Positions 55,804 through 58,919 of a stretch of 64,000 nucleotides of DNA are shown in pieces. Source of the DNA: Natronorubrum tibetense GA33 (lineage in GTDB: Archaea; Halobacteriota; Halobacteria; Halobacteriales; Natrialbaceae). The stretch is from the NCBI RefSeq assembly GCF_000383975.1, contig NZ_KB913018.1, positions 62,001 through 126,000 on the forward strand, read 5' to 3'. The notes under the pieces were generated by a model, which was given only the letters and a program-made list of their open reading frames with translations, was not told the DNA's origin and did not search any database. The stretch's first letter is position 1. Each line of letters begins with the position of its first letter. The position numbers and the translations under genes were made by a program.

Positions 55804-56188
55804 GATATTTTATGGACCCACCTTCATATATAAATAGTAATGACTCAGAGAGTTTTCTAGATATTTTTCAGTCTGATAAACGTTAGTGTAATGAGGTCCT
55901 CTTGCATATACTACCAGTCGAAATATATTGGGCTATCTTTCTGCGAGGAGAGAATCCCGTCGTTTACGACGGGAGTAAATCCGACAACTTTGACATCAAC
56001 CACCACTGATGGCAAGGTGGATATTCAACGCTAATACACACCGTTAAGTAGGCTTGTTTACAGGGTCAACAAGAGAAAGCCCACGACTTTAGTCATGTGG
56101 ATGAATCCGTCACTGCTGAAAATAACCACGACACCGTAGCCTGCTTACAATCCTAACGTTTACAGTACGTGAGCCTGACATTTAACGT

Positions 56189-57588
56189 ATGAGCGACCAA
56201 CCACAACGCACGAACGAGCACACTGCTGAACCCACCAGTGAACGGTATCGGCAGTGTTTATTCGAGTGGTTGGCCGCTCACGCTCCGTTATGGAACCAGA
56301 TCACCTACCGACGCCGACAGGAATACTTCGCCGATGACGGTGACGTCTGGGGCGCCGAGTACACGGACTTGTACGACGAGTACGCACCAGTCCTCGGCAA
56401 GGCAGCGTGCCAGCAGGTCACCCGCAAGAATAGCGAGGCATGGCGGAGCCACTTCCGCCTCCTCGGCAACTACCACAACGACTCGGACTCTACGGTAACA
56501 GAGAAACCCGGTCCACCGGGATACTGGGGCAACCGTGAGGACGGCTACGAGCTACACGGTCTCGTTCGCAATGACCTGTACGAGTTCGACTGGGATGAGG
56601 ATCGGAGTACGTTGGAGTTCGGTGTCGGCGAAGCTCTCGAAGAGAAGTACGACTTCGAGTACCAGGAACGTATCACGCTCGAAGTCCGCGGGAATCCCCA
56701 CTGGGAGGGTGATGATAGCAGGTTGGAACTTGTCTACGACGAGGCGGCTGCCAAGCTTCGTGTCAAGCATCCGGTTCGCATACGGCCAGATAACATACGC
56801 GAACAGCGACTGGATGCCTTCACTCATACACTCGACCCCGAGAACACGATGCAGTCAGCTGCGATCGACGTCGGCGCGAACAACACGCTTGCCATCGTCA
56901 CCACCACTGGGGAAACCGCAGTCTATCACACTCGACCAGAATTTAAACGGTTCCAAGTGCTGTCCGATCTGATTGCCGAGTTGCAATCAACACTCCCCGA
57001 CGGCCAGTACACGAGCAAGCGGATCCAACGCGCGTACAACGAACGTGGAGGGAAACGCGACCATAGTCGGGATACCGCGGTGAAACACGCGGCGGACTGG
57101 CTACTCGAACGGAACGTAGACACCGTGTACGTTGGTGATTTAACCGACATACTGGACACGCACTGGTCGGCTGAAGTGAACGAGAAAACCCATGCGTTCT
57201 GGTCGCACCGACAGCTCATCGACCGACTCGAGCTCACGCTCGGCGATATTGGAATCAGCGTCGAGCAAGTGAGCGAGGCTCATTCGAGCAGTGAGTGTCC
57301 GAGTGTGGAAGCGAGAATGCGTCAAGAGATGGTGATTCGTTCCGGTGCCACGACTGCGAGTTGGACGCGCACAGTGACACCGTCGGAGCGTGGAATCTGT
57401 TACAAAATGAGGTTGGGCCGATGGCGCGGCCCGCCGCCCTGGCTGCTGGACGCGGCAGGGACGTACCTACCGATGGGACGTACTGGGAGTGGGATGGACA
57501 CGACTGGAAACCCGCGGTTTTTGGGGAACAGTCGTGTCCGGTTGACCAAACCAGCGTCGGCAAACCCGCAAGTTCACAGCCGGGGTAA
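56189..57588 (+). pseudogene. tnpB: TnpB-family RNA-guided nuclease gene, frameshifted
   Basis: With one frame correction the gene encodes about 466 residues. The RuvC first motif is AAIDVGANNTLAIV (Asp 227). The second motif is VYVGDLTDIL, where most TnpB proteins have Glu at the Gly position. The four-Cys zinc finger begins SSSECP and continues CGSENASRDGDSFRCHDCE only after adding a base near 57300 (CCGAG where CCGGAG is expected). The third Asp is in HSDTVGAWNLL in the shifted frame. The C-terminus ends TSVGKPASSQPG. TnpB cuts DNA guided by an RNA made from the element's own 3' end. The frameshift removes the zinc finger and third catalytic residue, so this copy should be inactive. The shifted frame stays open far into the amidase, which is an artefact. 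Confidence 0.85.
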
Positions 57589-57648
57589 TCTGCTGGCCGG
57601 ATTGCCCACGGAGGAATCCCACGACTTCAGTCGTGTGGAGGACGTCAA
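57589..57648 (+). ncRNA. Element right end and omega-RNA 3' scaffold
   Basis: After the tnpB stop, CTGGCCGGATTGCCCACGGA leads to GGAATCCCACGACTTCAGTC, then GTGTGGAGGACGTCAA. By analogy with characterised TnpB elements the transcript of this region is the guide RNA, and its guide would begin at 57649, that is with amidase coding sequence ACGGGATCCCAATCGTC. The RNA itself is inferred, not seen. Confidence 0.5.
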
Positions 57649-58919
57649 ACGGGATCCCAATCGTCGTAAAGGATCACGTCGAGACAACCGACCTTCCGAC
57701 GACGTACGGCTCCACAGCGTTCGAAGGGTACATGCCGGAAGAAGAGTCAACCGTCACGCAACGCCTGCGCGATGCAGGGGCGATCGTTCTGGCGAAGACC
57801 ACGATGCCGGATTGGACAACCGCTTGGTTCGGATTCTCCTCGCTGACCGGGCGGACGAAGAACCCGTACGACCTGGAGCGAGATCCGGGTGGCTCGAGCA
57901 GCGGCACCGGCGCGGCCGTCGCCGCGAACCTGGGAGCGGTCGGCATCGGAACGGACTGTGGTGGGTCGATCCGTGTCCCCGCGTCGTTCGACAACCTCGT
58001 CGGGTTCCGCGTGACCCCTGGCCTGATCAGTCGCGCCGGCGTCAGTCCATTAGTCTCACAGCAGGACACGGCCGGACCAATGACACGGACGGTCCGCGAC
58101 ACCGCGACGTTGCTCGACGTCCTCGTCGGCTACGACGATCGGGACGACCTTACCGGGAAAACGGAACTCAGCCGGCCGCACGGGTCGTATACGAACCATC
58201 TCCTCCCGGACGGGTTGGCCGACTCGCGGATCGGCGTCCTCCGAGATGGGTTCGGTGACGACGACGATCCCGATGCCGCACCGGTCAATCGCGTGATCGA
58301 GCGAGCCCTCACGACGATCGACAACTCCGGCGCGACGCTCGTCGATCCCGTCGAAATCCCTCGCTTGGACGACTACTTGGAGGAGACAATGCTGTACATT
58401 CTGCAGTCGAAGCGCGATCTCAACGAGTTTCTTGCGGCCCGTGAGACGCCGGTTGCCTCCGTCGACGAACTCTACGAAACCGGCCAATACCACGACGTCC
58501 TGGACCTGTTCATCGGCTTCGCCGAGGAGGGCCCCGACGATCTTACGGACGATCTCGAGTACTGGAAGCGCCGATACACACAGCAGACGTTCCAAGAAGC
58601 AATCTTAACCGTTTTCGCGAGTCACGACCTCGACGCGATCGTCTACCCCGACGTGCAGGTCGTCCCACCGACGGAAGCCGAGATCCGAGACGGAAAGTAT
58701 GAGACGATGACGTTCGCCACGAACACGATTATCGCCTCGCAGTCGCTCTGTAGCGCGGTTTCGATCCCCGCGGGGATCACCGGTGATGGGCTCCCGGTCG
58801 GTCTTGAGTTCCTCGGGCGGCCGTTCGACGAACCGACGCTCCTCGAACTCGGGTACGCGTTTGAACAGGCGACCGATCACCGCCAGCCACCGGAGACGGC
58901 CCCGCCGTTAACCGAGTAA
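57649..58919 (+). pseudogene. Amidase (amidase-signature family), 5'-truncated by the TnpB element
   Basis: The remaining 423 residues begin inside the conserved NGIPIVVKDHVETT block. The Ser-Ser-Lys triad of the family is still present: Lys in VVKDH, Ser in PGGSSSGTGAAVAA and cis-Ser in TDCGGSIRVPAS. What is missing is the N-terminal 70-100 residues, usually helical and needed for the fold. A GTG at 57633 inside the element end keeps the frame open, so a fusion product is conceivable, but without the N-terminus activity is unlikely. The lost 5' part was not found elsewhere in the window. Intact members hydrolyse amides or glutaminyl-tRNA intermediates. Confidence 0.85.

What the first reader, a model, noticed from the sequence alone, without database searches (positions are those of the whole stretch)
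56189..57588. TnpB with Gly at the usual RuvC-II Glu position, plus a one-base frameshift in the zinc finger
The second RuvC motif reads VYVGDLTDIL; characterised TnpB proteins have Glu in place of this Gly (E-D-L). From memory the same VGDLT form occurs in other haloarchaeal members of this long subgroup, so it may be a family trait. If so, the subgroup could be nuclease-dead, like TnpB-derived repressors, or use another acid such as the next Asp. Separately, this copy has a lost base near 57300.
Basis: partly seen in the sequence, partly recalled or inferred. Interest (0 to 1): 0.6.

Follow-up and report, generated by a model that had tools for sequence, protein, structure and literature searches.

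The report
TnpB with relocated catalytic glutamate
This is a broken copy of a common salt-loving-archaea transposon nuclease (TnpB) whose apparently missing active-site glutamate has moved to another, fully conserved place in the protein, a rearrangement already described for Fanzor-like enzymes, so the family is probably not nuclease-dead.

Summary
An IS200/IS605-type TnpB gene lies at 56189-57588, with Gly in the RuvC-II motif (VYVGDLTDIL) and one missing base near 57300, the only frame-breaking change against seven intact relatives. The Gly is a family trait. The "nuclease-dead" reading is not supported. Every intact relative keeps a Glu 47 residues after the Gly, in the pattern ExxxxxxC just before the zinc finger. 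It is present in 35 of 35 aligned intact proteins and in 79 of 80 further places; the 80th has lost its zinc-finger end. This is the published rearranged RuvC-II glutamate ("Ealt") of Fanzors and some TnpBs. In a broader archaeal set, 70 of 70 TnpBs carry exactly one Glu: 43 at the Ealt position (Gly or Ser at the canonical one) and 27 at the canonical position (Pro or Ser at the Ealt one). In a predicted structure the Glu directly follows the fifth RuvC strand, where a Fanzor paper places the catalytic Glu. The "next Asp" idea fails: 19 of 115 relatives lack it. The element keeps TTAC/TCAA ends, hairpins and a conserved omega-RNA-like right end. Verdict: a decayed member of a known kind. Cleavage by this haloarchaeal family was not tested.

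The parts
56058..56061 (+). TTAC at the left boundary (insertion target / presumed TAM)
   Evidence: TTAC lies 18-19 bases before the left-end hairpin in 23 of 24 rows in which that hairpin was found (31 rows examined, window included; hairpin not found in 7)
56062..57648 (+). IS200/IS605-type element with tnpB only (IS1341-type), ending in TCAA (57645-57648)
   Evidence: right end GTC[AG]A in 31 of 31 rows, flanks unrelated beyond it; no Y1 transposase match in this place
56076..56107 (+). left-end imperfect hairpin
   Evidence: conserved in homologues
56189..57300 (+). tnpB up to the frameshift: N-terminal WED/REC part, RuvC-I, RuvC-II
   Evidence: (PF01385 75.2 bits, cut-off 30.5)
56867..56869 (+). 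RuvC-I catalytic Asp (D227)
   Evidence: invariant
57134..57136 (+). Gly at the canonical RuvC-II Glu position (G316)
   Evidence: 56 of 56 rows; 35 of 35; 80 of 80
57275..57277 (+). relocated (Ealt) catalytic Glu, E363, in the pattern ExxxxxxC
   Evidence: 35 of 35; 79 of 80, 1 truncated; 54 of 56 before filtering
57296..57588 (+). zinc finger, RuvC-III Asp (57376-57378) and C-terminal tail; all but the first Cys codon (57296-57298) lie in a shifted frame because of the one-base loss at about 57300
57490..57648 (+). probable omega-RNA scaffold overlapping and following the end of tnpB
   Evidence: region conserved past the stop codon, consensus fold with 40 pairs, 7 with a two-sided change; no Rfam match at E<=1
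57649..57668 (+). presumed guide: right flank, inside an amidase gene
   Evidence: inference from TnpB biology; right flank matches amidase genes of relatives from its first base

Best explanation
The family is an RNA-guided TnpB nuclease with a rearranged RuvC active site. The second acidic residue, normally Glu at the end of the fourth RNase-H strand (here Gly), is supplied by Glu363 at the end of the fifth strand, just before the zinc finger. Together with Asp227 and Asp397 it would bind the two metal ions and cut DNA chosen by the omega-RNA encoded at the element's right end. The likely role is retention and spread of an IS200/IS605 element that relies on transposase supplied in trans. The copy in the window has lost one base in its zinc finger and is probably an inactive relic, or a one-base sequencing error. 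Shown: the sequence, the conservation, the mutual exclusion of the two Glu positions, the topology of a predicted model, and the element ends. Inferred: metal binding, cleavage, guide use.
For: Glu363 is one of few invariant columns in 35 proteins that reach down to 25% identity to the first row, and is kept in 79 of 80 further places, with both Glu codons in use (GAA 89, GAG 25). It fits the published Ealt pattern ExxxxxxCxxC (PMC10711439). Glu sits at exactly one of the two positions in 70 of 70 archaeal TnpBs and in 22 of 22 full-length rows of this genome tabulated. In the AlphaFold2 model, strand 310-317 ends at about G316, strand 357-362 is followed at once by E363, D227 ends strand 222-227 and D397 opens helix 396-409; the Cell 2024 Fanzor paper puts the catalytic Glu in the loop between the fifth strand and the TNB domain (PMC11423790 section 7). 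Foldseek and VIA-align match TnpB, Cas12f and mimivirus Fanzor2 structures over residues of almost the whole core, about 1-412 of 468. Profile alignment to AsCas12f puts its M-E-D-L against the V-G-D-L, and Pro against Glu363.
Against: No cleavage assay and no experimental structure for this family. A residue-level alignment to a Fanzor chain was not obtained. One row, L023, a decayed-looking copy, has Asp at the Ealt position, and L017 lacks the segment. A conserved active site does not prove double-strand cleavage.
Confidence: 0.9

Rival explanations
1. The subgroup is nuclease-dead and works as an RNA-guided DNA-binding repressor, like TldR.
For: Gly at the canonical Glu position in all members.
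Against: All three acids of a RuvC triad are invariant, with Glu relocated. Transposon ends are kept and the sequence after TCAA differs from copy to copy, as expected of mobile copies rather than of a fixed regulator. The Ealt lineage is old and large.
Confidence: 0.04
2. The next Asp (D317 of VGDL) replaces the canonical Glu.
For: It is present in the window copy, and 96 of 115 relatives have Asp there.
Against: 19 of 115 have Gly, Asn, Glu, Ala, His or Arg while Glu363 does not vary in intact rows.
Confidence: 0.02
3. The site is intact but weakened, for example a nickase or an enzyme without collateral ssDNA cleavage, so that Ealt TnpBs differ in function from canonical ones. (Compatible with the best explanation.)
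For: PMC10711439 suggests that the repositioned Glu of Fanzors and pro-Fanzors may reduce trans-cleavage.
Confidence: 0.3

Closest known systems
TnpB-family proteins with rearranged RuvC-II glutamate (Ealt, D-Phi-G clade), PMC10711439
   Same: Glu six residues before the first zinc-finger Cys; no Glu at the canonical place; RuvC-I D-x-G without Pro; full TnpB fold
   Different: Haloarchaeal, in IS200/IS605-type ends; Val in D-V-G is outside the paper's listed hydrophobics (I, L, F, W, Y, M); activity not shown here
Fanzor / pro-Fanzor
   Same: Same relocated Glu by pattern and by topology
   Different: DPG in RuvC-I, IS607 or eukaryotic transposons; here DVG and IS200/IS605 ends
Canonical TnpB (ISDra2; paralogues in the same genome, e.g. 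L066, L081)
   Same: Fold, zinc finger, RuvC-I and RuvC-III Asp, right-end omega-RNA position
   Different: Canonical members carry Glu in the E-D-L motif and Pro, Ser or Ala where this family has Glu
TldR (TnpB-like nuclease-dead repressors)
   Same: TnpB descent; a change at the canonical RuvC-II position
   Different: TldR has lost catalytic acids (recalled); here a complete triad is conserved and transposon ends are kept

Membership tests
TnpB of IS200/IS605 | RuvC fold with OrfB_IS605 domain | tested here: met
   PF01385 75.2 bits, cut-off 30.5; Foldseek/VIA matches to TnpB and Cas12f
TnpB of IS200/IS605 | Passes NCBIfam guided_TnpB cut-off | tested here: not met
   NF040570 61.4 bits against a cut-off of 100 for the 366-aa piece before the frameshift, which lacks the C-terminus; the longer open frame gives 71 bits. 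A truncated query, so weak evidence
TnpB of IS200/IS605 | C4 zinc finger | tested here: met
   C370, C373, C387, C390 invariant in 35 of 35 intact relatives; split by the frameshift in the window copy
TnpB of IS200/IS605 | Hairpin ends with left TTAC and right TCAA cleavage sites | tested here: met
TnpB of IS200/IS605 | tnpA in the element | tested here: not met
   3 Y1 matches in the genome, none at C2:118058-119648; many TnpB elements lack it (IS1341-type, recalled)
TnpB of IS200/IS605 | RNA-guided DNA cleavage | not testable with these tools
   needs a plasmid or in vitro assay
Ealt TnpB | Glu six residues before the first zinc-finger Cys (ExxxxxxCxxC) | tested here: met
Ealt TnpB | No Glu at the canonical RuvC-II position | tested here: met
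   Gly in 35 of 35 and 80 of 80
Ealt TnpB | Relocated Glu placed in the active site of a structure | tested here: inconclusive
   right topology in the predicted model, but coordinates not available
Fanzor / pro-Fanzor | DPG at RuvC-I | tested here: not met
   DVG in the window
TldR | Loss of RuvC catalytic acids | tested here: not met
   D227, E363, D397 invariant

The most novel reading that the evidence does not exclude
The relocated glutamate defines a second, old and functionally distinct state of the TnpB active site that makes up a large part of archaeal TnpB diversity. Gly/Glu and Glu/Pro behave as a strict two-state switch, and the Ealt state may cut differently (for example without collateral cleavage), so that one archaeal cell runs two biochemically distinct TnpB fleets in IS200/IS605 elements.
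Probability: 0.25. Interest if true: 0.5.

Novelty: new member of a known kind. Interest (0 to 1): 0.22.

Why it matters
It removes a false lead (nuclease-dead haloarchaeal TnpBs) and shows that searches for dead TnpBs must check both Glu positions. It also shows that Ealt TnpBs are common in archaeal TnpB elements: one genome carries both forms side by side, which makes a paired test of what the relocation changes possible.

Tried and rejected
Nuclease-dead reading: rejected on conservation of a relocated Glu. Next-Asp reading: rejected on variability. Programmed frameshift: considered and not favoured, because seven intact relatives keep one frame; no recoding signal was searched for. Residue-level alignment to Fanzor2 (9b0l) was attempted with four sequence searches that printed alignments; the five printed alignments were always other chains (Cas12f and a deactivated Cas12f). 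Measuring acid distances in the model was not possible: no coordinates are laid out. Rfam gave no omega-RNA match. Ealt as one clade: the quick tree needs 2 changes of state among 110 rows (shuffled mean 33.7); holding Ealt together is not rejected (p-AU 0.118), so one or two switches cannot be told apart, and long branches are present. The missing N-terminal part of the amidase was sought in the genome with a relative's DNA and not found; there was no positive control. A viral-contig scan with A1 gave one relative.

Rows dropped: alignment A1 holds 35 of the 56 rows. Left out were the window copy and five disrupted rows (L053, L017, L021, L023, L029), six duplicate loci (L010, L037, L038, L039, L047, L056) and nine near-copies or incomplete ones (L019, L022, L040, L042, L045, L052, L060, L063, L065). 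Of the 80 places, three repeat earlier loci by their coordinates (L106=L017, L107=L018, L108=L020). In one search, four of 26 own-genome rows are fragments or frameshifted (L091, L092, L093, L095) and are not counted in '22 of 22'; two of 32 matches had no locus and were not examined. The tree left out those four fragments and thinned the window subgroup. An earlier count gave 25 and 24 for the left-end counts; the right numbers, recounted, are 24 and 23.

Full report
What is there. The window carries an IS200/IS605-type element with a tnpB gene and no tnpA. The left boundary is TTAC at 56058-56061, followed by an imperfect hairpin. The gene starts at 56189 and its reading ends at 57588. The right end runs to TCAA at 57648. 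Among 31 rows examined (the window and 30 relatives), the right end GTC[AG]A was found in 31; the left hairpin was found in 24, and 23 of these have TTAC at the same distance. Beyond the ends the flanks are unrelated between copies, as expected for mobile copies. TTAC and TCAA are, from recall, the cleavage sites of IS608. The strip from the last codons to TCAA is strongly conserved even past the stop codon, and has a consensus fold with 40 pairs, 7 of them with a two-sided change. This fits an omega-RNA scaffold, but Rfam has no match at E<=1.

The frameshift. Against seven intact relatives at 80-83% DNA identity the window has one frame-breaking gap, a single base at about 57300 between the first two zinc-finger Cys codons. 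The rest of the zinc finger and the RuvC-III Asp follow in another frame. Intact copies exist in many genomes. Decay is common in the family: among loci fetched, L017, L021, L023, L029, L033, L034 and L053 are also disrupted, split or cut.

The Gly. All 56 aligned rows have Gly at the canonical RuvC-II position. In alignment A1 (35 intact proteins, down to 25% identity) the invariant columns include D227, G316, E363, the four zinc Cys and D397; the next Asp (D317) is not among invariant or nearly invariant columns. In 80 further places from haloarchaeal genomes, 79 have D-G-E-D at these four columns and one has lost its C-terminal part (three of the 80 repeat earlier loci). Over the 115 rows, E363 is encoded by GAA 89 times and GAG 25 times with one gap, and position 317 is Asp in 96 only. 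Before filtering, E was present in 54 of 56 rows: L017 lacks the segment, and L023, which also has a changed RuvC-I motif, has Asp.

Match with a known rearrangement. PMC10711439 (passages and sections 23 and 30 read) defines Ealt as a RuvC-II Glu six residues before the zinc finger, searched there with ExxxxxxCxxC, in place of the canonical Glu about 50 residues before it. It reports two Ealt clades: DPG (Fanzors and cyanobacterial pro-Fanzors) and D-Phi-G. The family here has E-x6-C, with 47 residues from the Gly to this Glu, and DVG: the second kind by pattern. 'Archaea' and 'halo' have no hits in the main text held. I did not see its supplementary tables, so I do not claim that archaeal members were unknown to its authors. 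PMC11423790 (passages and section 7) puts the catalytic Glu of Fanzor in the loop between the fifth strand and the TNB domain and gives D383, E541 and D606 of SpuFz1 as metal ligands. The work of Jiang 2023 on the rearranged site was seen only as cited in PMC11931038 (passages).

A reciprocal switch. In the window's own genome, 26 further TnpB rows were tabulated. Of the 22 full-length ones, 15 have Glu at the canonical place (Pro 12, Ser 2, Ala 1 at the Ealt place) and 7 have Glu at the Ealt place (Gly 6, Ser 1 at the canonical place); none has both or neither; four are fragments. In 70 loci drawn from a phylum-wide search plus two fetches, 43 are Ealt (40 Gly, 3 Ser), 27 are canonical (26 Pro, 1 Ser), none both, none neither. 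That search used an Ealt profile, so the proportion of the two forms is biased; the mutual exclusion is less open to that bias. A quick tree without the trait's own columns needs two changes of state over 110 rows against 33.7 for shuffled labels; one Ealt clade is not rejected (p-AU 0.118). The state is therefore old and stable, not recent decay.

Structure. AlphaFold2 on L011 with A1 gave mean pLDDT 75.7 and pTM 0.51. Strand 310-317 carries G316 near its end; strand 357-362 is followed at once by E363; D227 ends strand 222-227; D397 opens helix 396-409. In an RNase-H fold (recalled), the ends of strands 1, 4 and 5 lie at the same edge, so Glu at the end of strand 5 can reach the metals. Foldseek and VIA-align place the model with Cas12f, ISDra2 and ISFba1 TnpB and mimivirus Fanzor2 (9b0l: Z 16.0, rmsd 8.1, 357 aligned; best row 8dzj Z 20.9, rmsd 8.1, 362 aligned). 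The high rmsd over the full length probably reflects a two-lobed protein.

How it most likely works. Shown: a complete D-E-D set by sequence, topology fitting the Fanzor description, TnpB fold, element ends and a conserved right-end RNA region. Inferred: the omega-RNA uses the flank after TCAA as guide, TnpB cuts matching sites next to TTAC, and cutting of emptied donor sites keeps the element in the genome, with transposase from elsewhere. The genome has three Y1 transposase matches, two with internal stops. The window copy itself is probably inactive through its frameshift.

Verdict. The Gly is real and a family trait, but it is explained by a known relocation of the catalytic Glu. The nuclease-dead reading is unlikely. 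What remains open is whether Ealt TnpBs of archaea cut differently from canonical ones; both kinds sit in this genome, so a paired test is possible.

Noticed in passing
window 57649-58919: The right flank is an amidase gene broken at its Leu-His-Gly-Ile-Pro motif. In 6 of 6 relatives examined about 80 residues precede this point in frame; left of the element no amidase coding is seen, so sequence was lost or rearranged.
   Followed up: partly
window about 55945-56000: A second left-end-like hairpin (AATCCCGTCGTTTACGACGGGAGTAAATCC) just upstream looks like the remnant of another IS200/IS605 left end.
   Followed up: no
own genome G000: 32 TnpB-family matches but only 3 Y1 transposase matches, all on contig C2 and two with internal stops: many tnpB elements, few transposases.
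   Followed up: no
L221, L232, L237: TnpBs from outside the window's order that keep the Ealt Glu and the RuvC Asp residues but seem to have a degenerate zinc finger (gap before the Cys in the alignment; one search shows L221 against Cas12f).
   Followed up: no
L078, L208, L209, L210: Ealt TnpBs with Ser instead of Gly at the canonical position (LAVSWP).
   Followed up: no
L186 (IMGVR_UViG_3300010222_000004): A viral-collection contig carries a 44% relative with the same VGAL and RSEAWTSQEC pattern, so the family also rides on such contigs.
   Followed up: no
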